The notes beneath the pieces are model-generated. The model was not told where the DNA came from and searched no databases. It worked only from the letters and a program-made list of their open reading frames with translations. From Elusimicrobiaceae bacterium (GTDB lineage: Bacteria; Elusimicrobiota; Elusimicrobia; Elusimicrobiales; Elusimicrobiaceae): a stretch of DNA of 64,000 bases. How positions within the stretch are numbered: the stretch's first letter is position 1; each line of letters starts with the position of its first letter. This document shows, one piece after another, positions 3,440 through 36,711 of this stretch. The position numbers and the translations under genes are program-made. Location: contig JAFXUJ010000003.1 in assembly GCA_017525025.1 (NCBI GenBank), forward strand, positions 62,001 to 126,000. Reading direction: 5' to 3'.

Positions 3440-4036
3440 TTACGCCAATCCTTCATCAGAAGTAATAATTTGCAGGGCGGGAGCTTTGGTTAGTTCCCAG
3501 CCGGTTAAGGTTTGCTCAATAAGCGGGGAGAGTTTCCCTTGTGCTTCCAAAATAAAATCAATAATTTCACGGTAGGCCCCATCTCCCCCTGCGCGGGTGG
3601 AGATAAAGTGAGCAGCTTGTTTGACGCAAGGTACGGCCCCGGGCACGGTGGCGGCGAAGCCAACCTGTTTCATCAAGGGCAAATCGGTAATATCGTCTCC
3701 AATGTAAGCAATTTGCTCGGGGGTTAGATTTTCCCGCTTTAAAATGTCATGCAGCGGCCCCAATTTAGATAAAAAGCCTTGATACATGTAATGGTAGCCC
3801 AAAATTTCTGTCCGACGTACGGTAGTGGCATGACGGCGCCCGGTAATAATGCCTAATATAAGGCCGGCTTTCCGCCCCAAAAGAGCGGCAATGCCATCTT
3901 GCGTGTGAAAAGATTTAAATTCGTCAACTCGGCCATCCGGCGTAAGGAAAAAATTTACTTTTCCGTCCGTTAAGATGCCGTCTACGTCGGTCAAAATAGC
4001 TTTTATTTTTTTAGCCCGTTCCAAAGTGTTTTGCAT
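3440..4036 (-). CDS. kdsC: 3-deoxy-D-manno-octulosonate 8-phosphate phosphatase (KdsC)
   Basis: This HAD-superfamily phosphatase releases Kdo from Kdo-8-phosphate, a step in making the inner core of lipopolysaccharide. Visible HAD motifs are motif I LTDVDGILTDG (near residue 16), motif II IITGR, a conserved lysine in FLSKLGPL, and motif III/IV YIGDDITDLPLMKQVG, followed by the usual AxVPGAxxxVKxxAxxISTRxGGDGAxRE tail seen in KdsC. The length of 198 residues is slightly above the roughly 170-190 of homologues. It is the first gene of the four-gene minus-strand operon. A -10 box ends only 7 nt before the ATG and no ribosome-binding site is visible, suggesting a leaderless mRNA. Confidence 0.88.
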   Translation of the reverse strand: MQNTLERAKKIKAILTDVDGILTDGKVNFFLTPDGRVDEFKSFHTQDGIAALLGRKAGLILGIITGRRHATTVRRTEILGYHYMYQGFLSKLGPLHDILKRENLTPEQIAYIGDDITDLPLMKQVGFAATVPGAVPCVKQAAHFISTRAGGDGAYREIIDFILEAQGKLSPLIEQTLTGWELTKAPALQIITSDEGLA

Positions 4037-4043
4037 ATAAGGT

Positions 4044-4052
4044 ATTATAGCA
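4044..4052 (-). promoter_or_regulatory. Extended -10 promoter of kdsC, leaderless type
   Basis: The minus strand reads TGCTATAAT followed by ACCTTAT and then the kdsC ATG. The TGn extension matches the extended -10 consensus. With 7 nt between box and start codon, transcription should begin at or next to the A of the ATG. Confidence 0.65.
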
Positions 4053-4079
4053 AAATTGGAAAGAGGCCCAAAAGAGGCA

Positions 4080-4379
4080 TTAATTGAATAGATATCCGGT
4101 TGCGTTTGACCCTATGGGTACGGTTTGGGTGCCGTAACTCCGGCAGATCTGGCGGCCGAGCGCATTATATCCGTGGCAGAATAATCGGCCGTTTTCTAAG
4201 AGGCCTATGCCATAAAATTGGGCCCAGGGTTCACGGTTGCAATAAACAATGGCCGCTAGGTCCGGCGTGTATTCTCCGGTGGACATGCGGTAGGCCATTT
4301 GGGCTTTTCCAATGGCGTTAACGAGAATAATTGCTTCTGCCGCGCGGGGTGTATTTTTTATATAATAAAGATACTTGTT
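4080..4379 (-). pseudogene. 5'-truncated type IV prepilin remnant
   Basis: The frame is open from 4379 down to a TAA at 4080 and encodes about 99 residues resembling the body of the prepilins in this window. It reads KYLYYIKNTPRAAEA, IILVNAIGKAQMAYRMSTG and EYTPDLA, lining up with the PQYFKAVERARMTEAVTLLGNIAQAQQ...NRYTTTFAGLDV segment of the intact pilin at 60186. The C-terminal part (YGIGLLENGRLFCHGYNALG, RQICRSYGT) resembles pilin ends with paired cysteines. The leader peptide and hydrophobic helix with GFTLIE are missing: a stop codon (4380-4382) precedes the frame and the clpC start region lies beyond. It is therefore probably non-functional DNA that now carries the clpC promoter. A short protein from the ATG at 4298 cannot be excluded. 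Confidence 0.6.
4361..4366 (+). promoter_or_regulatory. Probable -10 box of clpC
   Basis: TATAAT lies 34 bp upstream of the clpC ATG, with an AAAGGGG ribosome-binding site between them (4383-4389). The box sits inside the pilin remnant on the opposite strand. I see no good -35. Confidence 0.5.
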
Positions 4380-4400
4380 TTAAAAGGGGTAAGAAATACC

Positions 4401-6935
4401 ATGGCTAAACGTTTTACGGAAAATGCACAAAAAATTATTTTAATTGCACAAGAGGAAGCCAAACGGCTCAATCACGATTACGTAGGTACGGAACATATTT
4501 TGCTGGGGCTAAGCGCGTTGGATGGTACCGTATCGCACAAGATTTTAACCGGACTGGGGATTACTTTTCGTAAAGTTCGTCAAGAAATTGAAAAGATGGT
4601 GGGAATCGGGGATGCTATTATGCTTTCCGGTGAGATTCCTTTTACCCCGCGTGCCAAAAAGGTATTGGAATTTTCAGTAGAAGAATCCCAAATGTTGGGG
4701 GTGGAACATATCGGCACGGAACATATTTTGCTGGGGCTTATCCATGAAGAAGAAGGTATGGCCGGCAAAATTTTGGAAAATTTGGGACTGAATTTACACG
4801 TCGTGCGCGAAGCGGTTTTGAACTTTTTGGGCAATGCCGCCCCGGAAGATTTAGCCGAAAAGAATACGGAGTCTCCTTCCGATTTGGCGATGCCGTCTTT
4901 TTCTAAACAAGAAGAACAAGCCAAAGGGAGCAAACGAAATAAAACACCTACGTTGGACGAATACGCGCGTGATTTGACACGTCTGGCCATGCAGCATAAA
5001 TTGGATCCGGTTATCGGGCGCGAGGAAGAGATTGAGCGCGTTGTACAAATTTTAGCGCGCCGTACCAAAAACAATCCGGTGCTTATTGGTGAACCGGGCG
5101 TCGGGAAGACCGCCATTGTAGAAGGGTTAGCCCAAAAAATTGCACAAGGGGAAATTTCCGACGTGTTAGCCGGCAAACGGTTGCTTGCCTTGGATATGGC
5201 CTCTGTGATTGCCGGTACGAAATACCGTGGGGAATTTGAGCAACGTCTTAAAAATATCATAGATGAATTAACCGAAGCCCAAGATGCTGTTATTTTTATT
5301 GATGAGTTACACACTATTATCGGCGCAGGCGCGGCAGAAGGCTCTATTGATGCTTCCAATATGTTAAAACCGGCTTTGGCCCGCGGGGAAGTGCAGTGCA
5401 TCGGAGCGACCACCTTTGATGAATACCGTAAATATGTAGAGACGGATACCGCCTTAGAGCGTCGCTTTCAACCGGTGGTGGTAGAGCCGCCCTCAGCGGA
5501 AGAAACAATTACTATTTTAACGGGCGTGCGAAGCAAGTATGAGCAACATCACAAAGTTACCTATACGGATGGTGCCGTGCGCGCCGCAGCGATGATTGCA
5601 GATCGTTATATTACGGATCGTGCCTTGCCGGATAAAGCCCTGGATTTATTTGATGAAGCCGGTGCCCGCGCACGGTTAAAAAATGCCGTTTTACCGCCTG
5701 AAATTAAACAAAAACAAGCCGAGTATAATCAGGTCGTGCTGGAAAAAGACGAAGCCCTTTCTAAAAAGGAATTTGAAAAGGCCGCTGCTGCCAAAGACAC
5801 GGAAGACCGGCTGAAATCTTATATTGATCACTTAAAGCAAGAATGGCAAAAAGAACAAGGCAAGCATACTCCGGAAGTAACGGAAGAGGATATTGCCTTA
5901 GTTGCTTCTAAATGGACGGGCATTCCGGTTACGCGTATGACGCAAAGCGAAACGGAAAAAATTTTACACATGGAAGAACACCTGCATAAACGAATTATCG
6001 GGCAGGATGATGCCGTGCGGGTGGTGTCGCAGGCTATTCGTCGCAACCGTACCGGCTTGGGAAATCCAAACCGGCCGATTGGCGGATTTTTATTTCTAGG
6101 TCCCACCGGGGTCGGTAAGACGGAGCTTGCCAAAAGCTTGGCTACGTTCCTCTTTGGCGACGAAGAAGCCATGATCCGCATGGACATGTCGGAGTACATG
6201 GAAAAGTTTGCGGTTTCTCGCTTGATTGGGGCGCCGCCCGGCTATGTGGGATATGAAGAAGGCGGCCAATTGACGGAAGCTGTCCGCCGTCGGCCGTATA
6301 GTGTAGTGGTGCTGGACGAGTTGGAAAAAGCCCACCCGGATATTTACAACATTTTATTGCAGGTGTTGGATGAGGGAGCGTTATCGGATAATTTGGGGCA
6401 CAAAGTCAGTTTCAAAAATTGTGTTATTATCATGACGTCCAACGTCGGCGCGCGGGAAATTACCAACAAAGGCAGTCAGCTCGGTTTTGCCGCACATCAA
6501 AGCGAAGAACAAGAATATCAAGACATGCGTCAAAACGTTATGGAAGAAGTCAAAAAGACTTTCAATCCGGAGTTTATCAACCGTATTGACGAAATTGTGG
6601 TATTCCATTCGTTGTCCAAGGACAATATCGGCCAGATTTTAGATTTGGCCTTGCAAGAAGTAAGTGAGAAACTGGCCGATAAAGAACTGACGATTGAACT
6701 TACCCAAGCCGCTAAGGACTTCTTGGTGGAGAAAGGGTTTGATATTAAATTCGGCGCGCGGCCGCTCTTGCGCACGATCCAACGCGAGTTGGAGGATCCG
6801 TTAGCCGAACATATTTTAGTCAACCGCTATCCTGCGGGAGTTAAAATTATTGTAGACTTAGATAAAGAAGCGCAAAAATTGATTTTTGCAAAATCAAAGA
6901 ACAAAACAGAACATAAAGAACCTGCAACCGTTTAA
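4401..6935 (+). CDS. clpC: ATP-dependent Clp protease ATPase subunit ClpC
   Basis: An 844-residue Hsp100 AAA+ unfoldase that feeds substrates to ClpP. It has two N-terminal Clp repeats (residues about 1-145, with GTEHILLGL occurring twice), a first AAA+ module with GEPGVGKTA and [14 protein letters not shown], a central UVR-type coiled segment ([20 protein letters not shown]) that separates ClpC from ClpA, and a second AAA+ module with [12 protein letters not shown] and a C-terminal D2 domain. ATG 4401 is chosen because AAAGGGG lies upstream and [13 protein letters not shown] is the usual ClpC start; a longer in-frame extension to 4299 has no homologous look. No mcsA/mcsB/ctsR genes, the common Firmicute neighbours, are next to it; recA follows 14 bp downstream. 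Confidence 0.95.
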
Positions 6936-6949
6936 TTTGGGAGGAATAC

Positions 6950-7996
6950 ATGGACGCAAATAAACAGAAAGCCCTGGAACTGGCTTTGGGGCAAATAGAA
7001 AAAGCCTTTGGTAAAGAAGCCATTTGCAAATTAGGTGGCGGATCGGTGCAAAAAGTAGAAGCCATCCCCACCGGGGCATTATCCTTAGACTTAGCCCTTG
7101 GCGTGGGGGGACTCCCCCGCGGGCGCGTAATTGAAATTTACGGGCCGGAAGCCGGCGGTAAAACAACGCTTTCTTTGCATGTAGCCGCGCAAACTCAAAA
7201 GATGGGGGGAACGGTAGCGTTTATTGATGCGGAACATGCCTTGGACCCTGTTTACGCGCAACATTTAGGGGTGAATGTGGATGAACTTCTCGTTTCCCAA
7301 CCCGACTCCGGCGAACAAGCTTTGGAAATTGCCGAAAAATTAGTGCGTTCGGGTGCGATTGATTTGATTGTGGTAGATTCCGTGGCGGCCCTTGTGCCAC
7401 AAGCGGAAATTGAAGGGGAAATGGGCGATGCTCACGTCGGTTTGCAAGCGCGCCTCATGAGCCAAGCTTTGCGCAAACTCACGAGCCTGCTTAATAAAAC
7501 CAAAACGAGCATTATTTTTATCAACCAGTTGCGCCAGAAAATCGGCGTGATGTTTGGCAACCCGGAAACCACCCCCGGTGGATTGGCACTTAAATTTTAT
7601 GCTTCCGTACGTATAGATGTACGCCGCATTGAAAACTTGAAAAAAGGTGACGAAGTAATCGGCACCCGCGTGAGAGCTAAAGTAACCAAAAACAAAGTAG
7701 CCCCGCCGTATCGCCAAGCCGAATTTACCATGATTTTAGGCCAAGGTATTTCGCGCGAAGCGTGTATTTTGGATAAAGGGGTTGAGTCCGGCATTTTGGA
7801 AAAAAGCGGAAGCTGGTTTTTATACGGGGATGAAAAACTGGGTCAAGGGGCCGAGAATGCCCGCCAGTATTTAAAAGACAACCCGGAGCTGGCCGCCGAG
7901 ATTGAGGATAAATTGTATGTAAAATACCTCGGTCATCACTACGACGGTAAACCCGCTACCGAAGAAAAGCCGGCAGAAAAGAAAGCCAAAAAATAA
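6950..7996 (+). CDS. recA: Recombinase RecA
   Basis: RecA polymerises on single-stranded DNA, drives strand exchange and activates LexA-type cleavage. The 348-residue protein has the Walker [10 protein letters not shown] (the usual second half is ESSGKTT, so Ser-Ser is replaced by Ala-Gly), the Walker [11 protein letters not shown], loop L1 [18 protein letters not shown] and loop L2 [22 protein letters not shown]. The C-terminal tail is Lys/Glu-rich. GGGAGGAAT provides a strong ribosome-binding site. It follows clpC after 14 bp, so the two probably share a transcript that ends at the hairpin near 8016. I see no LexA box upstream, which fits transcription from the clpC side. Confidence 0.97.
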
Positions 7997-8015
7997 GTAT
8001 AGCGATTGTTTATGT

Positions 8016-8050
8016 AAAGCGGCGCAAATATTTGTGCCGCTTTTCTTTTT
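8016..8050 (+). terminator. Intrinsic terminator after recA
   Basis: An 8-bp stem AAAGCGGC/GCCGCTTT (8016-8023 with 8036-8043) is followed by a T-rich tail (TTTTCTTTTT). Confidence 0.85.
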
Positions 8051-8080
8051 GAAATAATAAAAAAGGAGACCTCTTGTTTA

Positions 8081-8094
8081 TTTTTTTTTTTTTT
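8081..8094 (+). repeat. Homopolymeric T14 tract upstream of a prepilin gene
   Basis: Fourteen consecutive T residues sit just upstream of the -10 box of the prepilin at 8135. They are preceded by AAAAAAGGAG (8060-8068) and a TTG codon at 8074. The tract is well separated from the recA terminator. Confidence 0.9.
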
Positions 8095-8107
8095 GATACA
8101 CTTGCCT

Positions 8108-8113
8108 TATAAT
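8108..8113 (+). promoter_or_regulatory. Probable -10 box of the prepilin at 8135
   Basis: TATAAT is followed after 21 nt by the proposed GTG start, with GGGAG at 8125-8129 as ribosome-binding site. The -35 region would fall within the T14 tract. Confidence 0.5.
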
Positions 8114-8134
8114 TTCTATCGTATGGGAGTACGT

Positions 8135-8671
8135 GTGTTAAATAAAATCAGTTATAAAAAAGGTTTTACCCTCATAGAGCTTCTCGTAGTAGTATTGATT
8201 ATTGGTATACTTGCTTCTATTGCGCTTCCTAAATATGAAATGGCTGTGATGCGTAGCCGCTATGCCACTTTGAAATCCAATGTAAATGCGCTTTACGAAG
8301 CGGAAAAAGTCCACCAGATGACCACGGGTAGTTATACAGCGGATATGGAAGAATTATCTATAAATCTTACGGGGTGTACGCTTTCTGCTGATAAAAGGAC
8401 TTGTACTTATCCGTGGGGAATGTGCCGGGCGGATAAAAATGAGTCGCGTGTATCGTGCCAAGATACGACGACATTAAAGAATGCCTATGTTCGGTATTTT
8501 TCTAAAACGGCTGTACACAATTATGGTACGAGTTCGTGTTGGGCTTTTACAAAGGATAAAAAAGATAAATATAACCGTCTTTGCCAGTTGGAAGGGGGAA
8601 CCTATGTGTGGGGAGCTGTGTGTACGAACCCTACGGGAGACGGTTGCCAAATCTACAAACTAACTGATTAA
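8135..8671 (+). CDS. Type IV prepilin-like protein
   Basis: The product carries a short basic leader followed by the class III prepilin signal KKGFTLIELLVVV, with cleavage expected between Gly and Phe by a PilD-type peptidase and the conserved Glu at +5. The hydrophobic helix runs to ILASIALPKYE, and the remaining 140 residues form a globular pseudopilin-like domain with eight or so cysteines (for example CTLSADKRTC, MCRADK, SCQD, SCWAF, LCQLEGG, CTNPTGDGC), probably disulfide-bonded outside the cell. The GTG at 8135 is chosen because GGGAG lies 5 nt upstream and gives a 9-10 residue leader; ATG 8123 and TTG 8093 are in frame but lie before or at the likely transcription start. It stands alone between recA and xerD with its own promoter. 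Whether it is a major pilin, minor pilin or pseudopilin is not decidable. Confidence 0.82.
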   Translation: MLNKISYKKGFTLIELLVVVLIIGILASIALPKYEMAVMRSRYATLKSNVNALYEAEKVHQMTTGSYTADMEELSINLTGCTLSADKRTCTYPWGMCRADKNESRVSCQDTTTLKNAYVRYFSKTAVHNYGTSSCWAFTKDKKDKYNRLCQLEGGTYVWGAVCTNPTGDGCQIYKLTD

Positions 8672-8702
8672 GATATATTATCCGGTGGTTGGAAAACTTT
8701 TC

Positions 8703-8708
8703 TATAAT
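8703..8708 (+). promoter_or_regulatory. -10 box of xerD, leaderless type
   Basis: TATAAT ends 8 nt before the xerD ATG and there is no Shine-Dalgarno sequence in the gap (ACCCTTAT). Transcription is expected to start at or next to the ATG. Confidence 0.5.
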
Positions 8709-8716
8709 ACCCTTAT

Positions 8717-9604
8717 ATGGACCGTGTATTATTGGAAGATTTTGCCAACCACCTTTCTTTTGAACGGCAACTCTCACGCAATACGGTGGCTTCTTACACG
8801 GCGGATGTGGCGCATTTTTTAGAATATTGCGTTGCCAATGAAATCCGCCCGGAAGACGCTTCCGCCCACTTTATTGAACAATACAACTACCAACTACTGG
8901 GGATTGAACATTTGGCTCCCACCAGTGCGTTTCGTAAAATGGAAGCGGTCAAAAGTTTCTATAAATTTTTGATGATTGAAGAGAAAATTCAAGACGATCC
9001 CACCCGTTTTGTTAAATCCCCAAAACTGGCCCAAAAAATTCCCACTCAACTCTCGCGCGAAGAAATGCAGCGCCTGCTCTCTTTTCCAGCGGAAAAATTT
9101 GACGAAATCCGAACGCTTACGATCATTGAACTTTTGTATGCGGCCGGGTTACGCGTAAGCGAACTCTTGGGCTTGCGGCTTGAAAATATCAACATAGAAG
9201 AAGGATGGGTATTAGCATTTGGCAAAGGGGGAAAACAGCGTTTTGTGCCTATTCACCCGGCCTGTATAGAACGGTTAAAAACATATTTGGCTACGCGGGC
9301 GGCTCATTTTGCCAACCGAGAGGTAGATTCGGAAGTGTTTTTAAATAACCGGGGCAAAAAATTAAGCCGTGTTACCGTATGGAAAGATTTGGCCGCTCTG
9401 GGGCGCAAAGCCAACATCTCCCAGCCGCTCCATCCGCACTTATTCCGCCATACGTTTGCTTCTCACTTGCTGCAAGGCGGGGCAGATTTGCGCAGTTTGC
9501 AAGAAATGCTCGGCCATGCCAATTTAACTACTACCCAAATTTATACGCATTTGGACGTATCCGACCTGAAAAACAAGCATAAGAAATACCACCCCAGAGG
9601 CTAG
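8717..9604 (+). CDS. xerD: Tyrosine recombinase XerC/XerD
   Basis: A 295-residue site-specific recombinase with the size and architecture of the Xer proteins that resolve chromosome dimers at dif. The N-terminal SAM-like core-binding domain begins LLEDFANHLSFERQLSRNT. The catalytic domain shows the first Arg in AAGLRVSELLGLR, the Lys-containing beta-hairpin (GKGGKQRFVPI), HLFRHTFASHLL (HxxR), LGHANLTTTQIYTHLD with the histidine and the nucleophilic tyrosine in IYTHLD. All key residues are present. I give xerD rather than xerC by resemblance only; there is no second Xer gene here for comparison. The start has a -10 box 8 nt upstream and no ribosome-binding site. Confidence 0.88.
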   Translation: MDRVLLEDFANHLSFERQLSRNTVASYTADVAHFLEYCVANEIRPEDASAHFIEQYNYQLLGIEHLAPTSAFRKMEAVKSFYKFLMIEEKIQDDPTRFVKSPKLAQKIPTQLSREEMQRLLSFPAEKFDEIRTLTIIELLYAAGLRVSELLGLRLENINIEEGWVLAFGKGGKQRFVPIHPACIERLKTYLATRAAHFANREVDSEVFLNNRGKKLSRVTVWKDLAALGRKANISQPLHPHLFRHTFASHLLQGGADLRSLQEMLGHANLTTTQIYTHLDVSDLKNKHKKYHPRG

Positions 9605-9651: not shown

Positions 9652-12165
9652 ATGAGTACTGATAATTTTCCGCAAATTGATAAAAAGCAGCAAGCCCGCT
9701 GGGAAGAAGCCCACCTTTTTGCCAGCCCCCGTTTACCCGGTTCCAAGAAGTTTTATTGTTTGGATATGTTCCCGTATCCGTCGGGAGCGGGTTTACACGT
9801 AGGGCACCCGGAAGGATACACGGCTTCTGACATTTTAACACGTTACAAACGCATGAACGGGTATGATGTGCTCCACCCCATGGGCTGGGACGCGTTTGGC
9901 TTACCGGCGGAAAATTATGCCATCGCTACCGGCGTTCACCCACGTGTAACTACACAAAAAAATATTGATAATTTTAGACGGCAAATTAAAGCGATCGGCC
10001 TTGCGTACGATTGGGACCGCGAAGTAGACACTACGGATCCGAACTATTACAAATGGACTCAGTGGATTTTCTTACAATTATTCAAAAAAGGCTTGGCCTA
10101 TGAGTCTACCGTACCGATAAACTGGTGCCCTTCGTGCAAAACGGGCCTTGCCAATGAGGAAGTTTTCAACGGTAAGTGTGAACGTTGCGGCCACGAGATT
10201 GAACGCCGTGCTTTACGTCAATGGATTTTAAAAATTACCGATTATGCCGAGCAACTGTTGCAAGGGTTAGATGAATTGGATTGGCCGGAAAGCACGCTGA
10301 CCATGCAGAAAAACTGGATTGGCAAATCCAACGGGGCCAATGTTTTATTTAAAGTGGACGGATGTGATGAAACATTAACTGTCTATACCACGCGGCCCGA
10401 TACACTTTTTGGTGCGACGTATATGGTTGTTTCACCCGAACACCCGATTTTATCTAAAATTGTTACACCGGCCCAGAAAGAAGCCGTAGCCGCTTATCAA
10501 AAAGAAGCTGCTAAAAAGAGCGACTTGGAACGCGGGGAACTGAATAAGGAAAAGACGGGCGTTTTTACCGGGGCTTATGCTATTAACCCGGTAAACAACA
10601 AAAAAATTCCGGTGTGGACGAGCGATTACGTGCTGATGGGCTACGGCACGGGTGCTATTATGGCTGTGCCCGCGCACGACGAGCGCGACTACGCTTTTGC
10701 CAAAAAATTCGGTATTGAAATTATTGAAGTTATTAAGAGCGAACAAGGAGTGGAAAAAGAAGCCTTCACCGGGGATGGAGAACTCGTTAATTCCGGTTTC
10801 TTAAACGGTTTACACGTCAAAGAAAGTAAGGCCGCTATGATTAAATGGCTTGCCGAACATCACTGCGGGAATGCCAAAACCACTTATAAATTGCGCGATT
10901 GGGTATTTGCCCGCCAACGCTATTGGGGGGAACCGATCCCGGTAGTACATTGTGAAAAATGCGGCGTAGTGCCTCTGCCGGAAAGTGAACTTCCCTTGCG
11001 TTTACCCGAAGTGGAAAAATTTGAACCCTCCGGCACCGGGGAATCCCCGCTCGCCACCGTAGAAAAGTGGGTTAATACCACTTGTCCGCATTGCGGCGGC
11101 CCGGCCAAACGCGAAACGAACACCATGCCCCAATGGGCCGGTTCCTGCTGGTACTACTTGCGCTACATGGACCCGAAAAACGCGGACAAACTTGTTTCGC
11201 CGGAAATTGAAAAGGCCTACGGCCCGGTAGATTGCTATATCGGCGGTGCGGAACACGCGGTGTTGCACCTTTTGTATGCACGGTTTTGGCACCGGGTATT
11301 ATATGATTTGGGCATTGTGTCGCATCCGGAACCCTTCAAAAAATTACGCCACCAAGGAATGATTTTGGCGTTTTCTTACCGGGATAAAATGGGCAACTAT
11401 CATGCCTATGACGAGATTGATTTTAAAGACGGAAAAGCTTTCTTAAAAACCACCGGAGAAGAATTATCTTCCATGGTGGAAAAGATGTCTAAATCTAAGA
11501 AAAATGTTGTCAATCCGGACGATATCCTCAAAGAATACGGCGCGGACGCTTTCCGTATGTACGAAATGTTTATGGGGCCGTTTGATGCCAGTAAACCTTG
11601 GGATATGAAAGGGATTGAGGGCGTGTCACGCTTTTTAAAACGGGTGTACGGCTGGAGTGAAAATGTCCGCTTATCTGACGGGCCAGACCCTAAAAAGAGT
11701 GAGATTTTGAAAAATAAAACGATTGAAAAAGTAAGCGACGATATTGAAAATTTCCGTTTCAATACGGCTATTTCCGCGCTGATGGTGTTGTTTAATGATA
11801 TCAGTAAATTGCCGCAAGTCAGCCGCGCTACTTTTGAAACATTCTTAAAGCTCTTGCACCCGTTTGCCCCGCATCTCACCGACGAGATTTGGCAGCAACA
11901 AGGGCATACGGATTTTCTCTTGCAGACCGCGTGGCCGGTAGCAGATAAAAATTTCTTGCAAGAAGATACCCTTGAACTGGGGGTACAAGTGAATGGTAAA
12001 GTGCGCGACCGCATTGCCGTAGCGGTTTCTGCTTCCCGCGAGGAAGTAGAAAAGGCCGCCCTTGCCAGTGAAAAAGTGCAACGCAGTTTAACAGGTTTTG
12101 AGATCAAAAAAATCATTGTGGTGCCGGGCCGTATGGTCAGTATCGTGGCGGCACCTCAAAAATAA
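9652..12165 (+). CDS. leuS: Leucyl-tRNA synthetase
   Basis: An 837-residue class Ia synthetase that charges tRNA-Leu. Motifs are the HIGH-type sequence GAGLHVGHPEGY (near residue 45), a CP1 editing domain (TTRPDTLFGATYMV and GTGAIMAVPAHDERDYAFA, which contains the editing-site Asp), the zinc-type CPSCKTGLANEE...CERCGHE, an additional CPHCGG cluster, and the KMSKS loop EKMSKSKKNVVNPDD. The C-terminal part includes the anticodon-binding helical bundle and the small C-terminal domain ending in IIVVPGRMVSIVA. It heads a leuS-lptE-holA cluster, the same gene order as in many Proteobacteria. Confidence 0.96.
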   Translation: MSTDNFPQIDKKQQARWEEAHLFASPRLPGSKKFYCLDMFPYPSGAGLHVGHPEGYTASDILTRYKRMNGYDVLHPMGWDAFGLPAENYAIATGVHPRVTTQKNIDNFRRQIKAIGLAYDWDREVDTTDPNYYKWTQWIFLQLFKKGLAYESTVPINWCPSCKTGLANEEVFNGKCERCGHEIERRALRQWILKITDYAEQLLQGLDELDWPESTLTMQKNWIGKSNGANVLFKVDGCDETLTVYTTRPDTLFGATYMVVSPEHPILSKIVTPAQKEAVAAYQKEAAKKSDLERGELNKEKTGVFTGAYAINPVNNKKIPVWTSDYVLMGYGTGAIMAVPAHDERDYAFAKKFGIEIIEVIKSEQGVEKEAFTGDGELVNSGFLNGLHVKESKAAMIKWLAEHHCGNAKTTYKLRDWVFARQRYWGEPIPVVHCEKCGVVPLPESELPLRLPEVEKFEPSGTGESPLATVEKWVNTTCPHCGGPAKRETNTMPQWAGSCWYYLRYMDPKNADKLVSPEIEKAYGPVDCYIGGAEHAVLHLLYARFWHRVLYDLGIVSHPEPFKKLRHQGMILAFSYRDKMGNYHAYDEIDFKDGKAFLKTTGEELSSMVEKMSKSKKNVVNPDDILKEYGADAFRMYEMFMGPFDASKPWDMKGIEGVSRFLKRVYGWSENVRLSDGPDPKKSEILKNKTIEKVSDDIENFRFNTAISALMVLFNDISKLPQVSRATFETFLKLLHPFAPHLTDEIWQQQGHTDFLLQTAWPVADKNFLQEDTLELGVQVNGKVRDRIAVAVSASREEVEKAALASEKVQRSLTGFEIKKIIVVPGRMVSIVAAPQK

Positions 12166-25182: not shown

Positions 25183-25518
25183 TTACCCGGCAGGCCACAA
25201 GAATCTGCGCCCGGCCATTAAGTGAAAGTGTAAATGGTCTACACTTTGCCCGGCCCCTTTGCCGTTATTGGTAATTAAGCGAAAATCCTTTAAGTTGAGG
25301 TCCCGGGCTAATTTTTGGGCTACCAACAAAATATGCCCCAGGAGGGCGGCGTCTTTTTCGTCCGCCTCGCTTAAGCGCGCAATGTGTTTGCGCGGGATAA
25401 TGAGCAAATGGGTAGGCGCTTGCGGATTTAAATCTTTAAACGCTACCACTTGGTCATCTTCGTACACTAATTGGCTTTTAATAGAGCCATCGGCTATGCC
25501 GCAAAAAATACAATTCAT
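25183..25518 (-). CDS. HIT-family nucleotide hydrolase (HinT-like)
   Basis: A 111-residue histidine-triad protein. It begins CIFCGIADGSIKSQLVYEDD, a segment typical of the HinT branch, and carries the triad VDHLHFHLMAGR with the catalytic His in HxHxHxx. These proteins hydrolyse purine nucleoside phosphoramidates and acyl- or aminoacyl-adenylates in the cytoplasm. The C-terminus (RRFLWPAG) matches HinT. The TGCTATAAT box ends 6 nt before the ATG with no ribosome-binding site, suggesting a leaderless transcript. It lies directly upstream of the rpsU promoter on the same strand. Confidence 0.9.
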   Translation of the reverse strand: MNCIFCGIADGSIKSQLVYEDDQVVAFKDLNPQAPTHLLIIPRKHIARLSEADEKDAALLGHILLVAQKLARDLNLKDFRLITNNGKGAGQSVDHLHFHLMAGRRFLWPAG

Positions 25519-25524: not shown

Positions 25525-25533
25525 ATTATAGCA
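25525..25533 (-). promoter_or_regulatory. Extended -10 promoter of the HIT gene, leaderless type
   Basis: The minus strand reads TGCTATAAT, then ACTTGT, then ATG. Six bases separate the box from the start codon. Confidence 0.65.
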
Positions 25534-25553: not shown

Positions 25554-27344
25554 CTATTTATAAAACTGACTAAATGTTTTCAAGCCCTCCTTTACCAGCG
25601 TGGCGGGTGGGGTAACCGTAACCGGTTCTAAATGCGGGCCATATTGCCGGGAAGTATTAAAGCGGCTAAAAACTAGGATGGTATCTTCCATGCGTAAGGC
25701 TTGCTCTTCATACCCGGCAAATATAATAAAGGGGCGTGGAGTAGAATCCAATAAGTGATAGCCGATACTATAATCGGAGGTCGGATCGCTGCATTGAAAA
25801 ACGGTTTGCAATACGGTCGGGGCAATGTCGTAATGCGTTGTACGGTAATCTACGCGGTCGGGGGCTGAAATCCCCGGGAAATGTGCTACCAACGGCACAT
25901 TGGTTTGGTAATCGGTAAAGTTGCTGTTATGCCCCCAAAAATTTTGGTGGGAATCATTGAGTTCTTGCCCGTGATCTCCCGTAATGAGAACAAGGGTGTT
26001 TTCAAGCAAATGGCGTTGTTGTAAATCCGATAGAATTTGGTCTATCTGTTTGTCAATAAAATAAACCGAATTTTTATATTGGTTGAAATAGGGAGTCGGA
26101 TCTGTGCGGTTAGAAAGTAAGATATAATTAATTTCCTTAGCCGGAGTGAAAGGCTTGTCCCCTTCGGGGTAACTATATCCGTGCGGAGCGTCTAAAAAGA
26201 TAAATCCAAAAAAAGGCACATCCGCTTTGCGCGTGCGTAAAAAATGTTCAAATCCCTCTACAGCTTCGCGGTCACGTTTCCAAGACAGTCCGGGTTTGGA
26301 ACCGATACGCAAGTGCGGAATAGAGGCAAAGATATTCCGGTCAAAAGAGGGGCTGTTTAATTTACTGCTGGCAAAAATAGCAGGTTCATAGCCATTTTGT
26401 AAGGCCTGGCTGATCAGGAGTGGCGGTAAGTTGAGACCGGTAAAATCATCCCAATAGGAGAGAGGCAAACTATAGAAAAGGGAAAACACGCCTCCGGCCG
26501 TAGAATTACCGCCGGAAAGATGACGGGTAAAAACGGTCATGTTCTGTTTTTTTACCCAAGCGGACAAGCGGGGCATTACTTCCGGGTTTAGCATATCTGC
26601 CCGCCAAGAGTCTACCAAAAAGAGTAAGACGTTAAGTGGTTTTTGTATAGTGGGACAGGAAAGGCTTTGCGGATAGCGCAAGTTCCCTTTTGGAGGGATC
26701 GCATAGGGTTGTCTTTTCGGTTCAAAGCCCCATTTACGCAGTTGGCGATTGGCGGATAACGGAAAGGTTAACGGCAATGCTTTGCGTTGGGAAACAATGG
26801 ACGGAATTTGCATAAACTGGCCCCAAGCATACATGGCATTATAAGTTAAAAAACAGACTAGCCAAATGCCGAGGATAGCAAAGATTATTCTTTTGGAAAG
26901 AACTATATATCTGGATAGGTAAGCCAAACCTGTTTCCAATGCCAATATGGCCAGTATAATCAACCCCGCTAGCAGCCACATGCCGGCAGAAAACACAAAG
27001 ATATCCGACCGGGCAGGTCCCAAAAGGAGTTGTAACATTGCTACGCCTACATGAAAACGATACTGGGAGAAAACAACCCAGTCAATTACCAGTAAAGTTG
27101 AAAAAAAACTTCCCCAGCAAACGCCGGCTACCTGCAGGGAACGTGAACCAAGCCGGCTCCAGGGCCAAGCCAACAACCCCACCAACAAAGCAAATACAAA
27201 TGTATGCCCAATTAAAAAGGTAACGGTAAACAGTATACCGGCTACATCAAGATAGAAACCGTTGATATGAAAGAAACTCAAAGATGCCAGGCCCCAGACG
27301 AGTGATTGCAAGCAGACAAAAGGGAAAAGATGTTTAGCTTTCAT
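25554..27344 (-). CDS. PbgA/LapC (YejM)-like inner-membrane alkaline-phosphatase-superfamily protein
   Basis: The 596-residue protein has five or so transmembrane helices (about residues 10-200) and a periplasmic sulfatase/LTA-synthase-type domain. The segment LLFLVDSWRADML followed by SGGNSTAGGVFSLFYSLPLSYW matches the YejM pattern (DGWRxDML ... GNxTxxGxFxLFYGLPxxYW), and VLITGDHGQELND with FWGHNSNF closes the fold. In E. coli YejM (PbgA, LapC) binds lipopolysaccharide and LapB and so stabilises LpxC. The match is to sequence motifs, not a full alignment, and a phosphoethanolamine or glycerol-phosphate transferase role cannot be excluded. ATG 27344 has TATAAT ending 6 nt upstream and no ribosome-binding site. 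Confidence 0.7.
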   Translation of the reverse strand: MKAKHLFPFVCLQSLVWGLASLSFFHINGFYLDVAGILFTVTFLIGHTFVFALLVGLLAWPWSRLGSRSLQVAGVCWGSFFSTLLVIDWVVFSQYRFHVGVAMLQLLLGPARSDIFVFSAGMWLLAGLIILAILALETGLAYLSRYIVLSKRIIFAILGIWLVCFLTYNAMYAWGQFMQIPSIVSQRKALPLTFPLSANRQLRKWGFEPKRQPYAIPPKGNLRYPQSLSCPTIQKPLNVLLFLVDSWRADMLNPEVMPRLSAWVKKQNMTVFTRHLSGGNSTAGGVFSLFYSLPLSYWDDFTGLNLPPLLISQALQNGYEPAIFASSKLNSPSFDRNIFASIPHLRIGSKPGLSWKRDREAVEGFEHFLRTRKADVPFFGFIFLDAPHGYSYPEGDKPFTPAKEINYILLSNRTDPTPYFNQYKNSVYFIDKQIDQILSDLQQRHLLENTLVLITGDHGQELNDSHQNFWGHNSNFTDYQTNVPLVAHFPGISAPDRVDYRTTHYDIAPTVLQTVFQCSDPTSDYSIGYHLLDSTPRPFIIFAGYEEQALRMEDTILVFSRFNTSRQYGPHLEPVTVTPPATLVKEGLKTFSQFYK

Positions 27345-27350: not shown

Positions 27351-27356
27351 ATTATA
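27351..27356 (-). promoter_or_regulatory. -10 box of the PbgA-like gene, leaderless type
   Basis: The minus strand reads TATAAT, ATAAGT, ATG. The box is preceded by AAG, so there is no TGn extension. Confidence 0.6.
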
Positions 27357-31171: not shown

Positions 31172-31194
31172 GTATGTTGTAAGGCCGCTTGAAT

Positions 31195-31203
31195 TGATAT
31201 AAT
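31195..31203 (+). promoter_or_regulatory. Extended -10 promoter of the histidine kinase gene
   Basis: TGATATAAT is followed by AGAGG (31211-31215) and the ATG at 31220. The leader is only about 10 nt but includes a ribosome-binding site. Confidence 0.5.
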
Positions 31204-31219
31204 ACTTACAAGAGGTATT

Positions 31220-32929: not shown

Positions 32930-33639
32930 TTGTATTTTGGCGTTTATTTTTAGCGTATTTTTTGACGGATTTTGTGTTTTTTCACCGCACGATTAACCAA
33001 ATACGTGCCGCCAACCGTACCCGCGGAATGATTCTGCAAGCAGCGGTCTTTTTGGGGTGGAGTTTCACTTTGTGTTATGGCTATTTAACGATGAAATGGC
33101 CCTTTTTGGATCTGGTTGACTTGCCGGGATGGTTGTGCATTTTACTGTTTGGAACTTTCCATGTGTTAACAGACGATTTGTTTCAATACGGTGGCAAAGT
33201 AAAACATGGCTACGTAATCACTTTTTTTGTTAAAAACGGTGTCAACCTGATGTTTTTGTTTTTATGTGTGCCGTTCCATGCGCTTTATGAAACGGGTAGT
33301 TTTTTTGCAGAACCGTGGATCATTTTTTGTGTGGGGATGGTGTGCGCTACGCGGGTGTTGGGGTGGTTGCTTGCTTCCGTGGAGCAAGATCGTCACAATG
33401 TGGATTACGTAACGTTTGATGAACGGTGGTTGTTGATGCTCGTTCGGGCAATTTTCTTTTTAATTATGCTGTTACCCGGTTGGCGTTGGATCGTACTTTT
33501 TGTTGTATGGCTGGGGGCTTGTATGTATGCGCGGAACATCCGGCTTATGGATGTATCCAATATGATATTTTACGCCGGAACGTTTGGAGCGGCATTTATC
33601 GGCTTTTTAGTGCGGTTGCGGTTTTATTTGATTGGGTAG
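32926..33639 (+). CDS. DUF3307-like multi-spanning membrane protein
   Basis: A 237-residue protein with about six hydrophobic helices. The N-terminal LFLAYFLTDFVFFHRTINQ and the later FGTFHVLTDDLF resemble the HxxxDF and HxxxD helices of DUF3307 proteins, a family of unknown role. Conserved polar or charged residues within helices suggest transport or catalysis in the membrane, but I do not assign a function. Start overlaps the histidine kinase stop (ATGA), so the two are probably made together. Identification of the family is tentative. Confidence 0.5.
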   Translation: MIVFWRLFLAYFLTDFVFFHRTINQIRAANRTRGMILQAAVFLGWSFTLCYGYLTMKWPFLDLVDLPGWLCILLFGTFHVLTDDLFQYGGKVKHGYVITFFVKNGVNLMFLFLCVPFHALYETGSFFAEPWIIFCVGMVCATRVLGWLLASVEQDRHNVDYVTFDERWLLMLVRAIFFLIMLLPGWRWIVLFVVWLGACMYARNIRLMDVSNMIFYAGTFGAAFIGFLVRLRFYLIG

Positions 33640-33640
33640 T

Positions 33641-34234
33641 ATGGAACTTCAAAATATTAAATTTGCGTGTTTAGATACGGAAACGACAGGATTATCCCCA
33701 CAAGGGGGCGGTAAAATTTGTGAAGTGGCAGTCAGCGTTTCGCAAGGCGGCCAAGTTTTAGAAGAGTTTTCCACCCTGGTCAACCCCGGTATTCCCATGT
33801 CCCCCGAAGTAATTGCTATCCACGGCATTACAAATGAAATGGTAAAAGACGCCCCTACGTTTGCCGATATCTTGCCCCGGTTGTTGGGGGTATTGGATAA
33901 TTGTGTATTGGTTGCCCATAATGCTGATTTTGATATTTCATTTTTGCGGGCTGAGTTTGAAGCCTGCGGAGTAAATTTCCCGCCGTATCCGGTTATTGAT
34001 ACGTTAAAATTGGCGCGCAAAAGCGGAAAATTTGAGCGTAACCGTTTAGGGCTGATTGCCCAACAACTCGGGATCAATTGCGAAGGCTGGCACCGCGCCA
34101 TGGCCGATACCAAAATGGCCGAACAGATTTTTTATTATTTCGTAGCGACCTTACATAAACACGGGGTGCATACGTTGGAACAGTTGGATGAGTTCCAACG
34201 TAAACGCTGGCCGGATTTAATCGGTTGCAAATAG
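33641..34234 (+). CDS. DEDDh-type 3'-5' exonuclease (DnaQ-like)
   Basis: A 197-residue DnaQ-fold nuclease. The three exonuclease motifs are visible: Exo I ACLDTETTGLSP (Asp and Glu), Exo II LVAHNADFDISFLRAEF, and Exo III HRAMADTKMAEQIFYYF with the catalytic His before the Asp. It may be the proofreading epsilon subunit, a PolC-type exonuclease module, or a nuclease in repair or RNA turnover; the sequence does not decide. ATG 33641 lies 2 bases after the preceding stop. Downstream, gpmI starts after 9 bases with a GAGAGGG ribosome-binding site, so the gene may share its transcript. Confidence 0.85.
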   Translation: MELQNIKFACLDTETTGLSPQGGGKICEVAVSVSQGGQVLEEFSTLVNPGIPMSPEVIAIHGITNEMVKDAPTFADILPRLLGVLDNCVLVAHNADFDISFLRAEFEACGVNFPPYPVIDTLKLARKSGKFERNRLGLIAQQLGINCEGWHRAMADTKMAEQIFYYFVATLHKHGVHTLEQLDEFQRKRWPDLIGCK

Positions 34235-34243
34235 GAGAGGGAT

Positions 34244-35797
34244 ATGAAAAAAGTAGTTTTGTTAATTCGGGACGGTTGGGGGAATGCCAAAGCAGGAAAA
34301 TACAATGCCGTGAGTTTGGCAAAAATTCCAAACATTACCAAGTATTTGGCTAACTATCCGCATACGGAAATAGAAGCATCCGGAGAGCAAGTAGGTTTGC
34401 CGGCCGGGTACATGGGATCCAGTGAAGTAGGACACCTGAATATGGGGGCGGGGCGTATTGTAATTCAAGAATTAAAACGCCTCAAAGATACCATTGAAGA
34501 CGGCTCTTTGTTTAAATCGTCCGCTTTTTCCGCTTGTATAGATAACTGCTTAAAAAATCAAAAACCGCTACACATTATGGGCCTCGTACAAGATGAAGGT
34601 GTCCATGCTCACCACGATCATTTACACGCGATTATTAAATACGCGGCCGAAAAAGGCATCAAAGAGATTTATGTTCATTTCTTTGCGGACGGACGCGATA
34701 CGCCGCCGCAAAGTTCTATCGGCTATATCCGCACCTTGGAAGAAAAAATGAAAGAAGCCGGCGCAGGTAAAATTGCCACCATCCAAGGCCGTTACTACGC
34801 CATGGACCGTGGCGAAGATTGGAGTCTAACTGATAAAGCGTATAACTTAATTGTCCGCGCACAGGGGTTGCACGGCAACTCGGCCGAAGAAATTGTGAGC
34901 GAAGATTACAAAACCTTAAAAACTCCGGATGGTGGCCCGATGGTAGACGAATATATCCCGCCTACGGTGATTGGTGATTACAAAGGCATGGAAGAAAATT
35001 CCAGTGTGATTTTCTTTAACTTCCGGCAGGACCGCGCCATCCAACTTACCCGCGCGTTTATTGATGACGATTACCCGGGTAAAGACCGCGGTACGCGTGT
35101 GCCGTGTGTGTTTTGCGGCTTAACCAAATACTATGATTCCTTCCCATATAATGCCTTGCCCTCTATGACGGACGGCGGCGGGATGAATAATTTGCTGGGG
35201 GAAGTGATTTCTAAAGCGGGTTTAAAACAACTGCGCCTGGCCGAAACGCAAAAATTTAAACACGTAACGTCTTTCTTTAACGGCAAACTCTTAAAACCGT
35301 ACCCCGGAGAGGACCGCATTGAAAAGAAAGGCCGCTTTGACCCGGCCACTTTTGCCGACCATCCGGAAATGGAAGCGTATATCGTCAAGGACGAAGCTAT
35401 TAACCAAATCAACTCCGGCAAATATGATTTTATCGTCATCAACTTTGCTAACTGTGATATGGTGGGCCACACGGGTAATTTGAAATCCGTTATCAAGGCC
35501 GTTGAAGTGGTAGACGAATGCACCGGCGCCGTAACCGAGGCCGCACTGGCCAAGGACTACGTGGTGCTAATTACCGCCGATCACGGAAACGCTGAAGAAA
35601 TGTGGGATGAAAAAATCAATATGCCCAAAACGGCGCACACTACGAATTTGGTGGATTTTATCTATGTGGATAAAAACAATAAATCTGCCAAAATGCAGCC
35701 CACGGGCAACCTGGGCGACGTGGCGGCTACGGTGCTAGACGTAATGGGCTTAGAAAAACCCGCCGACATGACGGCTCGTAGTTTGATTAAGCACTAA
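34244..35797 (+). CDS. gpmI: 2,3-bisphosphoglycerate-independent phosphoglycerate mutase
   Basis: A 517-residue manganese enzyme of the alkaline phosphatase superfamily that interconverts 3- and 2-phosphoglycerate in glycolysis. It starts VVLLIRDGWGNA, with the Asp metal ligand, followed by the catalytic-serine motif GYMGSSEVGHLNMGAGR; HFFADGRDTPPQS, GRYYAMDRGEDW, NFRQDRAIQLTRAF, NFANCDMVGHTGN and LITADHGNAEEMWD carry further metal and substrate ligands. The order of motifs matches complete GpmI. A strong hairpin terminator follows. No cofactor-dependent mutase (gpmA) is seen here. Confidence 0.95.
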   Translation: MKKVVLLIRDGWGNAKAGKYNAVSLAKIPNITKYLANYPHTEIEASGEQVGLPAGYMGSSEVGHLNMGAGRIVIQELKRLKDTIEDGSLFKSSAFSACIDNCLKNQKPLHIMGLVQDEGVHAHHDHLHAIIKYAAEKGIKEIYVHFFADGRDTPPQSSIGYIRTLEEKMKEAGAGKIATIQGRYYAMDRGEDWSLTDKAYNLIVRAQGLHGNSAEEIVSEDYKTLKTPDGGPMVDEYIPPTVIGDYKGMEENSSVIFFNFRQDRAIQLTRAFIDDDYPGKDRGTRVPCVFCGLTKYYDSFPYNALPSMTDGGGMNNLLGEVISKAGLKQLRLAETQKFKHVTSFFNGKLLKPYPGEDRIEKKGRFDPATFADHPEMEAYIVKDEAINQINSGKYDFIVINFANCDMVGHTGNLKSVIKAVEVVDECTGAVTEAALAKDYVVLITADHGNAEEMWDEKINMPKTAHTTNLVDFIYVDKNNKSAKMQPTGNLGDVAATVLDVMGLEKPADMTARSLIKH

Positions 35798-35824
35798 CTT
35801 CTAATACACCCACAAATGTAAATG

Positions 35825-35852
35825 AAAAGGGCCGCTTAATGCGGCCTTTTTT
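35825..35852 (+). terminator. Intrinsic terminator after gpmI
   Basis: AGGGCCGC/GCGGCCTT stem with the 5-nt loop TTAAT, followed by TTTTTT. Confidence 0.85.
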
Positions 35853-35883
35853 ATGATAAGATTAAATAAAAGAGGTTTATTTT

Positions 35884-36417
35884 ATGTCGGATTTAGAAGA
35901 TAGAGCATACGAAATAAAAAACACGGGTTGTACGTTGGCTTTTGCCTGGGCACTTATTGCTTTCTTTGGCGGCATTTTTCTTGTTGCTCAAATAGTACTT
36001 ATTTCCAGGGGGTATACCTCTTTTGCGGAATTGCTCCCTTGGTTAATATTAGATTCCTTTATTGTTTTATTTTGCTTTTTAACTTTTAGGACGGATAGGG
36101 TTTCTTTAGCTGTTGACCCGGCATACATAAAAATAGGACGTTCAAAAATAGAATGGTTTAAAATAAAAGAAATTTTGATATATAAATCTTCAAGAAGAAT
36201 GATTGTTTCCAATCATATCATGTCAAAGAGGGAAGTTTTTCTTATTGATTTAGCATACAATTTCCCAATAATAATCCTCGTAATATCTATTTTGGGGTTC
36301 ATTTCGGGAGTTAAACGGATAGATATGCTTGATTCAGAGAGGGAATTTGAGAAAATAGTTTCTCTTGTGAAATCTTATTGTAAAACTTTCAACATAGACT
36401 TAACCGAACACGTGTAA
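35884..36417 (+). CDS. Unknown membrane protein, AT-rich
   Basis: A 177-residue protein I do not recognise. It has two adjacent N-terminal hydrophobic helices (about 16-40 and 49-65), a soluble stretch of about 55 residues (RVSLAVDPAYIKIGRSKIEW, KIKEILIYKSSRRMIVSN) that looks like a small beta-rich, bacterial PH-like domain, then a third helix (about 125-142) and a charged tail. Compared with the flanking genes its codons are visibly richer in A and T (many ATA, AAA, TTA codons), which suggests recent acquisition. AAAGAGG lies 7 nt upstream of the ATG. It stands alone between the gpmI terminator and the YggU gene. Confidence 0.7.
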   Translation: MSDLEDRAYEIKNTGCTLAFAWALIAFFGGIFLVAQIVLISRGYTSFAELLPWLILDSFIVLFCFLTFRTDRVSLAVDPAYIKIGRSKIEWFKIKEILIYKSSRRMIVSNHIMSKREVFLIDLAYNFPIIILVISILGFISGVKRIDMLDSEREFEKIVSLVKSYCKTFNIDLTEHV

Positions 36418-36471
36418 AATCTTCACCTCTGTTTGAATGGGGCGCTCCCTTTTGGGCCGCGCCCGTTTTTG

Positions 36472-36477
36472 TATAAT
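36472..36477 (+). promoter_or_regulatory. -10 box of the YggU gene, leaderless type
   Basis: TTG-TATAAT is followed by ATCCCT and then the ATG at 36484. No ribosome-binding site is present in the 6-nt gap. Confidence 0.6.
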
Positions 36478-36483
36478 ATCCCT

Positions 36484-36711
36484 ATGGAGCAATACCTTAA
36501 AGTAAAAGTTCACGCGGGCGAAAAACATAATAAACTTGTAGAAAAATCCGCGGATGCATATGAGATCTGGGTAAAAGCCCCGGCCGAACAAGGCCGCGCT
36601 AACGAGGCCGTGCGGGCCGTTTTGGCCGCTCACTTAGGTATTAACGAAAACAAACTTTCCCTCATCAAAGGGGCCACCAGCCCGGCCAAAATCTTCCTTT
36701 TGCGCAAGTAG
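36484..36711 (+). CDS. YggU/DUF167 family protein
   Basis: A 75-residue protein with the DUF167 pattern: KVKVHAGEKHNKL, then IWVKAPAEQGRANEAV and a C-terminal segment with GATSPAKIFLL. The family has a compact alpha/beta fold; a molecular role is not established. ATG 36484 is preferred over an in-frame codon at 36433 because the protein then starts MEQYLKVKVHAG, and the -10 box lies between those codons. It is transcribed in the same direction as, and just upstream of, the rpsF operon promoter. Confidence 0.85.
   Translation: MEQYLKVKVHAGEKHNKLVEKSADAYEIWVKAPAEQGRANEAVRAVLAAHLGINENKLSLIKGATSPAKIFLLRK

What the first reader, a model, noticed from the sequence alone, without database searches (positions are those of the whole stretch)
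4034..36486. Recurrent leaderless genes: -10 box 6-8 nt before the start codon
Seen directly: kdsC (box 4044-4049, gap 7), HIT gene (25528-25533 region, gap 6), PbgA-like gene (27351-27356, gap 6), YggU gene (36472-36477, gap 6) and xerD (8703-8708, gap 8) each have TATAAT immediately before the ATG and no Shine-Dalgarno sequence. A box ending 6-8 nt upstream puts the transcription start at the ATG itself, so the mRNAs would be leaderless. leuS (TAAAAT, gap 10) is nearly so. Other genes in the same window have normal leaders with GGAG, so the organism would use both modes. The pattern explains why strong start codons lack ribosome-binding sites.
Basis: partly seen in the sequence, partly recalled or inferred. 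Interest (0 to 1): 0.72.

Follow-up and report, generated by a model that had tools for sequence, protein, structure and literature searches.

The report
Leaderless genes in Elusimicrobia gut bacteria
In these gut bacteria some genes carry their promoter box right against the start codon, so the message very probably begins with the start codon itself and needs no ribosome-binding site; this way of starting is known from other bacteria, but here it looks like a conserved trait of one class within its phylum.

Summary
All five boxes and the leuS one exist (one coordinate is 3 nt off). In 464 kb of this Elusimicrobiaceae genome, TAnnAT ends exactly 6 nt before 25 of 189 operon-first starts (mean about 3 at other spacings) and 4 of 206 operon-internal starts. 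Starts with a box at 6-7 nt rarely carry a Shine-Dalgarno sequence: 1 of 32 against 82 of 158.

Relatives support it most strongly. For the six named genes, 141 of 170 relatives keep a box 5-9 nt before ATG, against 1 of 228 for ten Shine-Dalgarno-led window genes. In four kdsC relatives the box lies 15-22 nt away, and each has a Shine-Dalgarno sequence.

The spacing excess is found in 55 of 56 genomes of the own class but 24 of 63 from the phylum's other classes. So the leaderless reading is well supported, without RNA data.

The mechanism is known from Actinobacteria, Deinococcus-Thermus and others; I found no report for Elusimicrobia in the papers searched. An open lead: within the class it is strongest where ribosomal protein S1 is short, but that may be a single evolutionary event.

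The parts
4044..4049 (-). TATAAT -10 box of kdsC, gap 7 to ATG 4036-4034, preceded by TTTTGC (extended -10)
   Evidence: by eye, 31 of 35 relatives keep it at gap 6-10; the other 4 have it 15-22 nt away plus SD
3440..4036 (-). kdsC-like HAD phosphatase gene, predicted leaderless
8703..8708 (+). TATAAT -10 box of xerD, gap 8 to ATG 8717
   Evidence: 18 of 32 relatives keep a box at gap 5-9
8717..9604 (+). xerD-like tyrosine recombinase gene, predicted leaderless
   Evidence: PF00589, PF02899
9636..9641 (+). TAAAAT box of leuS, gap 10; 23 of 23 relatives have a box at gap 5-9
9652..12165 (+). leuS, predicted leaderless or nearly so
   Evidence: (PF13603 etc.)
25525..25530 (-). TATAAT -10 box of the HIT gene, gap 6
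   Evidence: box in 30 of 30 genomes incl. own; of 29 relatives 28 at gap 6 and one at 7
25183..25518 (-). HIT-domain gene, predicted leaderless
   Evidence: PF01230
27351..27356 (-). TATAAT -10 box of the PbgA-like gene, gap 6
   Evidence: 17 of 20 relatives keep a box at gap 5-9
25554..27344 (-). PbgA-like membrane protein gene (DUF3413 + sulfatase domain), predicted leaderless
   Evidence: PF11893, PF00884
36472..36477 (+). TATAAT -10 box of the YggU gene, gap 6
   Evidence: 22 of 29 relatives keep a box at gap 5-9
36484..36711 (+). YggU (DUF167) gene, predicted leaderless
   Evidence: PF02594
56071..57459 (-). ClC-type channel gene with TAAGAT at gap 7 and no SD; further leaderless candidate, relatives not examined
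   Evidence: (PF00654)
4401..6935 (+). Clp-type AAA ATPase gene divergent from kdsC: leadered, SD-led control from the same intergenic region
   Evidence: 0 of 31 relatives have a box at gap 5-9, 31 of 31 have one elsewhere within 44 nt, SD in 25; (Clp_N, AAA_2)

Best explanation
These genes are transcribed from a housekeeping-sigma promoter reduced to a -10 element placed directly before the start codon. RNA polymerase melts the TATAAT box and starts about 7 nt downstream of its last base, at (or within a few nt of) the A of the ATG, so the mRNA has no leader. The ribosome, probably as an fMet-tRNA-loaded 70S or IF2-bound 30S, recognises the 5'-terminal AUG without Shine-Dalgarno pairing. The same cell uses leadered, SD-led messages for many other genes. 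Shown here: position, sequence, spacing, near-exclusivity with SD, preference for operon-first genes in this genome, conservation over relatives, class-wide occurrence. Inferred: the actual transcription start and the ribosomal route (general knowledge of leaderless initiation).
For: Spacing peak: TAnnAT at gap 6 in 25 of 189 operon-first starts, mean about 3 at the other gaps 0-40; 4 of 206 operon-internal (25 of 190 and 5 of 208 after retraining). Exclusive with SD: 1 of 32 against 82 of 158, Fisher p 6e-8. Relatives of six genes: box at gap 5-9 in 141 of 170, same box at gap 15-19 in 11 of 170; ten SD-led window genes: 1 of 228. HIT: over 30 genomes the -36 to -30 zone has 0.0-0.2 bits per base, the box 1.8-2.0, the bases just before it 0.7-1.3 (-18 to -14), and -1 is T in 29 of 30. 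Natural switches: in kdsC 4 of 4 relatives with the box at 15-22 nt have SD, none of the other 31 has. The box stands 6 nt before the ATG in 3 of 11 relatives whose start is shifted (L060, L084, L156), not in the other 8. A divergent SD-led neighbour from the same intergenic region never has the box near its start (0 of 31). Class-wide: 55 of 56 genomes show the spacing excess, 4399 against 2425.
Against: No RNA evidence. In one search, 6 of 109 leaderless-looking relatives also carry an SD-like string. xerD keeps the box in only 18 of 32 relatives and YggU in 22 of 29, so the state is labile. The match rule gives some false hits: 10 of 34 relatives of the operon-internal gene 1784-2821 match it, apparently inside the end of the preceding coding sequence. 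In small gene-called samples of other genomes of the class the box at gap 6 is not clearly commoner at operon-first starts: G100+G051 2 of 64 first and 5 of 48 internal, G030 3 of 15 and 3 of 23, G084 4 of 32 and 2 of 28, G108 2 of 37 and 0 of 33. In the other family of the order (f2) the HIT spacing is looser: by eye 12 of 20 at 6-9, six at 10-12, two without. Gene starts are from my own simple caller, and starts of relatives were set to the nearest in-frame ATG.
Confidence: 0.9

Rival explanations
1. The AT-rich box is a translation signal (for example a site for ribosomal protein S1 or an unstructured AU-rich stretch) on a leadered mRNA whose promoter lies further upstream.
For: AT-rich upstream regions of non-SD genes have been discussed as possible S1 sites (PMC5397173, passages seen). 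In small samples of some other genomes the box is as frequent at operon-internal starts.
Against: A translation signal should serve operon-internal genes too, but in the own genome the box is at 25 of 189 first and 4 of 206 internal starts at gap 6. The element is a defined TATAAT at fixed spacing with TTTG or an A-rich run before it, not general AT-richness, and in kdsC relatives where it lies further from the ATG an SD is present.
Confidence: 0.06
2. A variant of the best explanation: the boxes are real promoters but RNA starts a few nt upstream of the ATG, so that a very short leader is made.
For: Gaps vary from 5 to 10, and kdsC and leuS relatives often have gap 9 (kdsC 15 of 33, leuS 9 of 23).
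Against: The commonest gap is 6 (95 of 166 boxes) with T at -1 (157 of 166), the arrangement that puts +1 on the A of ATG. For gaps 8-10 a 2-4 nt leader is quite possible, which is leaderless in practice.
Confidence: 0.25
3. Chance: an AT-rich genome gives TATAAT before some starts.
Against: Shuffles, wrong-spacing counts, 63 genomes of other classes without the excess overall, and 141 of 170 conserved boxes.
Confidence: 0.005

Closest known systems
Leaderless genes with a TAnnnT / TAtaaT signal about 12 bp upstream of the start (Zheng et al. 2011, PMC3160421; passages and section 7 read)
   Same: Same -10 box at the same place relative to the start, same coexistence with SD genes, TG before the box in several low-GC genomes.
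   Different: That survey found leaderless genes in 207 of 953 genomes and the groups it lists in section 7 do not include Elusimicrobia (one genome is 'unclassified'); I did not see its tables. It gives about 20% of genes for Actinobacteria and 30-40% for Deinococcus-Thermus; here the excess is roughly 12% of operon-first genes.
-10 motif adjacent to ORFs in Deinococcus-Thermus (Zhong et al. 2025, PMC12340547; passages and section 11 read)
   Same: -10 motif a few bp upstream of the ORF is the promoter of leaderless genes, with weak dependence on other upstream sequence; no -35 seen here either.
   Different: There 100% of the species of the phylum and about 30% of ORFs, with reporter tests. 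Its all-bacteria scan (Fig. S7) was not seen, so Elusimicrobia may be in it.
Leaderless class of bacteria in GeneMarkS-2 (Lomsadze et al. 2018, known to me through passages of PMC9581028)
   Same: Genomes predicted to use leaderless transcription for a part of their genes beside SD (21.6% of bacterial species, as cited there).
   Different: Species list not seen (paper not held).
Mycobacterial leaderless transcriptome (Cortes et al. 2013, PMC3898074; search listing only)
   Same: An extensive set of leaderless messages in a bacterium.
   Different: Established there by mapping of RNA 5' ends; not done here.

Membership tests
Bacterial leaderless genes | -10 box at the spacing that puts +1 at the start codon | tested here: met
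Bacterial leaderless genes | No Shine-Dalgarno sequence | tested here: met
   SD in 1 of 32 TA-led against 82 of 158 other operon-first starts; 6 of 109 relatives with the box near ATG
Bacterial leaderless genes | Start codon ATG at the RNA 5' end | tested here: inconclusive
   DNA only: ATG in 31 of 31 candidates (the caller favours ATG); at the aligned start HIT 30 of 30, YggU 28 of 30; one PbgA relative has GTG there (L154). The RNA end is not known
Bacterial leaderless genes | Mainly first genes of operons | tested here: met
   own genome: 25 of 189 first, 4 of 206 internal at gap 6; not clear in small samples of other genomes
Bacterial leaderless genes | Transcription start mapped within about 5 nt of the start codon | not testable with these tools
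   no RNA data
Bacterial leaderless genes | Translation from the 5'-terminal AUG | not testable with these tools
   no ribosome or peptide data
Sigma-70 promoter with -35 box | TTGACA-like -35 at spacer 15-19 | tested here: not met
   at least 5 of 6 matches in 4 of 166, control spacing 21-25 5 of 166
Extended -10 promoter | TGn before the box | tested here: inconclusive
   83 of 166, gene by gene: kdsC 24 of 33, leuS 22 of 23, fmt 21 of 24, HIT 9 of 29, PbgA 6 of 17, but xerD 0 of 18 and YggU 1 of 22, which are A-rich there instead

The most novel reading that the evidence does not exclude
Leaderless initiation became a stable part of gene expression in the class Elusimicrobia together with the loss of the C-terminal part of ribosomal protein S1: with a short S1 and an intact anti-SD, S1-dependent leadered starts lost ground and -10 boxes moved onto start codons. 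The class would then be a natural experiment linking S1 architecture to the mode of translation start.
Probability: 0.15. Interest if true: 0.65.

Novelty: new member of a known kind. Interest (0 to 1): 0.42.

Why it matters
It adds a class of little-studied gut and environmental bacteria to those predicted to use leaderless messages, with other classes of the same phylum as a contrast. It shows leaderless and leadered forms of one gene in related genomes, and that gene annotation in this group should use -10 boxes as well as SD to place starts. The co-occurrence with a short S1 gives a testable question about how ribosomes choose between the two modes.

Tried and rejected
Chance and AT-richness were rejected by shuffles, wrong-spacing counts and other classes. 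An S1 or AU-rich translation signal was judged unlikely because in the own genome operon-internal genes largely lack the box. A -35 box was sought and not found. The pilin-like gene 8123-8671 was dropped as a leaderless case.

Gene-called tallies in other genomes of the phylum were too small to decide anything by themselves, and in some of them the box was as common at operon-internal starts; the whole-genome pattern counts were used instead. S1 length as the cause: short S1 lies on one side of one branch of a 16S tree of 11 sequences (support 100/99; one row, G051, is half empty; families f22, f24, f25 are not in it), so the association may be one event; the f10 family has a shortened S1 (open frames 455-494 aa) without the excess, and G080 (399 aa open frame) has no excess (163 against 176). 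The functional classes of leaderless candidates were looked at but not tested for enrichment.

Dropped rows: L056 (Flavobacteriales) from the kdsC set; for PbgA 8 of 29 loci had no usable start; only the 20 of 60 called window genes with at least 5 relatives in the held loci are reported, relatives are counted once per distinct upstream sequence and are not independent; one search found no S1 at E 1e-20 in 5 of 119 genomes, all f9.

Full report
What was checked. The window lies in a metagenome-assembled genome of 1.55 Mb in 17 contigs. Of 35 close kdsC relatives, 31 have record titles of Elusimicrobium, Elusimicrobiaceae, Elusimicrobiales or Elusimicrobia and four say only 'uncultured bacterium', so I place it in Elusimicrobiaceae, class Elusimicrobia (lineage). 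Reading the sequence confirms each box of the finding; only the HIT coordinates are 3 nt off.

Is it more than chance. I called genes with a simple hexamer-based caller that does not look at upstream motifs, in the window and 400 kb of other stretches. Of 395 starts, 189 are operon-first by a rough rule (no neighbour, different strand upstream, or at least 60 nt away). TAnnAT ends exactly 6 nt before the start in 25 of these 189; the mean at the other gaps 0-40 is about 3 (highest: 11 at gap 36, 7 at gaps 0 and 7, 6 at gap 33). It does so in 4 of 206 operon-internal starts. TATAAT at gap 5-9: 15 of 189, shuffles mean 1.37 and at most 5. With one mismatch allowed in the middle of the box: 32 of 189, shuffles mean 8.8, at most 17; operon-internal 9 of 206, shuffles 5.0. 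With one mismatch anywhere: 34 of 189, shuffles mean 16.6, at most 32. The excess is roughly 12% of operon-first genes (32 against 8.8). A search over k-mers at fixed offsets brings up SD strings first, then ATAATA at gap 5 (15th) and TATAAT at gap 6 (20th), in the operon-first set; only SD-like purine strings are among the 22 best of the operon-internal set. Box and SD nearly exclude each other: among starts with a box at gap 6-7, 1 of 32 has SD; among the rest, 82 of 158.

Relatives. For kdsC, 35 loci: by eye 31 have TATAAT 6-10 nt before ATG, none of them with SD; the script's 5-9 rule counts 28, because two have a second box overlapping the start and one has gap 10. The other four have the same box 15-22 nt away and an SD between box and ATG. 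For HIT, 30 of 30 genomes of the genus including the own have it: conservation by column shows T- and G-rich bases just before the box, the box, A at -6 (23 of 30) and T at -1 (29 of 30), and nothing around -35. YggU shows the same layout with a weaker box. Over six genes (kdsC, xerD, leuS, HIT, PbgA-like, YggU) 141 of 170 relatives have a box at gap 5-9 and 11 of 170 at gap 15-19, and 23 of 170 have SD. Ten window genes that are SD-led in the own genome have the box in 1 of 228 and SD in 194 of 228. The four remaining window genes reported have the box in 14 of 125, ten of these from gene 1784-2821, where the matches look like coding sequence of the preceding gene. leuS, 'nearly so' in the window, has the box at 5-9 nt in 23 of 23 relatives. 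fmt, found in the sample, has it in 23 of 29.

A control from the same DNA. The gene divergent from kdsC (a Clp-type ATPase) shares the intergenic region: none of 31 relatives has a box within 5-9 nt of its start, all 31 have one elsewhere within 44 nt, and 25 have SD. So the same genomes use such boxes in two layouts.

Promoter form. Over 166 boxes from seven genes: gap 6 in 95, 7 in 26, 8 in 14, 9 in 26, 5 in 3 and 10 in 2; T at -1 in 157; no -35 box (4 of 166 against 5 at a control spacing); TG before the box in a gene-specific way, otherwise A-rich. T at -1 is also common in SD-led genes of the own genome (53 of 79 operon-first, 66 of 112 internal; TA-led 26 of 31), so it is weak evidence by itself.

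Spread. Counting TATAATN6-7ATG against TATAATN16-17ATG in 119 genomes drawn from the phylum: own genus 1845 to 832 (24 genomes), rest of the family 942 to 603 (9), other family of the order 1148 to 750 (12), rest of the class 464 to 240 (11); 55 of 56 genomes have the excess. Other classes: 6291 to 6442, 24 of 63 genomes. Those include many AT-rich genomes, in which a small excess would be harder to see; still the mean there is about zero or below. Gene-called samples of other genomes were small and do not by themselves show the operon-first preference: at gap 6, G100+G051 2 of 64 first and 5 of 48 internal, G030 3 of 15 and 3 of 23, G084 4 of 32 and 2 of 28.

Translation apparatus. The 16S tail is GGATCACCTCCTT in 10 of 11 full 16S genes of the class, and the eleventh holds GATCACCTCCTT; the search found no 16S in the own assembly. 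By the S1 model (TIGR00717), S1 is short in the own order (open frames 395-437 aa) and in f5, f7 and f8 (385-456 aa, one frame of 840 in G082), with matches ending near position 347 of 516; f22, f24 and f25, from drafts, look short too. It is 555-600 aa in f3, f4, f6, f23, f26 and f27 of the class (one f6 draft, G169, gave only a weak fragment) and mostly of that length in other classes, with 455-494 in f10 and f12; five f9 genomes gave no match at E 1e-20. The own S1 is 396 aa; four domains is my inference from the coverage, Pfam shows two S1 stretches on their own. Outside the own order the spacing excess is 289 to 109 in short-S1 genomes (7) and 175 to 131 in full-S1 genomes (4). A 16S tree puts the four short-S1 lineages on one side of one well-supported branch. 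It is a lead, not a result.

What is in print. Leaderless genes with this box are well described (PMC3160421 passages and section 7; PMC12340547 passages and section 11; PMC5397173 passages; PMC9581028 passages). Searches of the held library: leaderless with Elusimicrobi- gave 2 papers, Shine-Dalgarno with Elusimicrobiota 2, Pribnow with Elusimicrobia 1, Elusimicrobium minutum with promoter and transcription start 1. From titles, abstract starts and, for PMC10783764, passages, none reports leaderless genes there. PMC10783764 lists Elusimicrobia and Endomicrobia with an ordinary anti-SD. Broader searches were seen as listings, partly capped. PMC6705787 on S1 domain numbers does not name Elusimicrobi- or leaderless in its main text. 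Supplementary species lists of the large surveys were not available, so the class may be in one of them.

Verdict. The kind is known; its occurrence as a conserved trait of this class, not seen by the same test in the phylum's other classes, appears to be new.

Noticed in passing
L002:14718-15908 (G000:C7:34718-35908): Ribosomal protein S1 is only 396 aa; a short S1 is shared by families f1, f2, f5, f7, f8 of the class while f3, f4, f6 have a full-length S1.
   Followed up: partly
L020:15335-16288, L011:6675-7196, L002:8341-8811, L008:3630-4217: Leaderless-looking genes outside the window include methionyl-tRNA formyltransferase, peptide deformylase, SmpB and ClpP, linked to translation start or protein quality control; only fmt was followed in relatives (23 of 29).
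   Followed up: partly
window 8123-8671: Pilin-like gene (N-terminal methylation motif) with TATAAT at gap 9 that is not conserved in relatives (1 of 50; paralogues possible), so probably a chance match.
   Followed up: yes
L052 and L046, kdsC upstream: In two relatives a stretch with AGGAG lies between the box and the ATG, looking like a direct change from leaderless to leadered form.
   Followed up: partly
YggU relatives L142 and L144: YggU relatives with neither box nor SD near the start; an inverted repeat followed by a T run stands right before the ATG, as if the preceding terminator abuts the gene.
   Followed up: no
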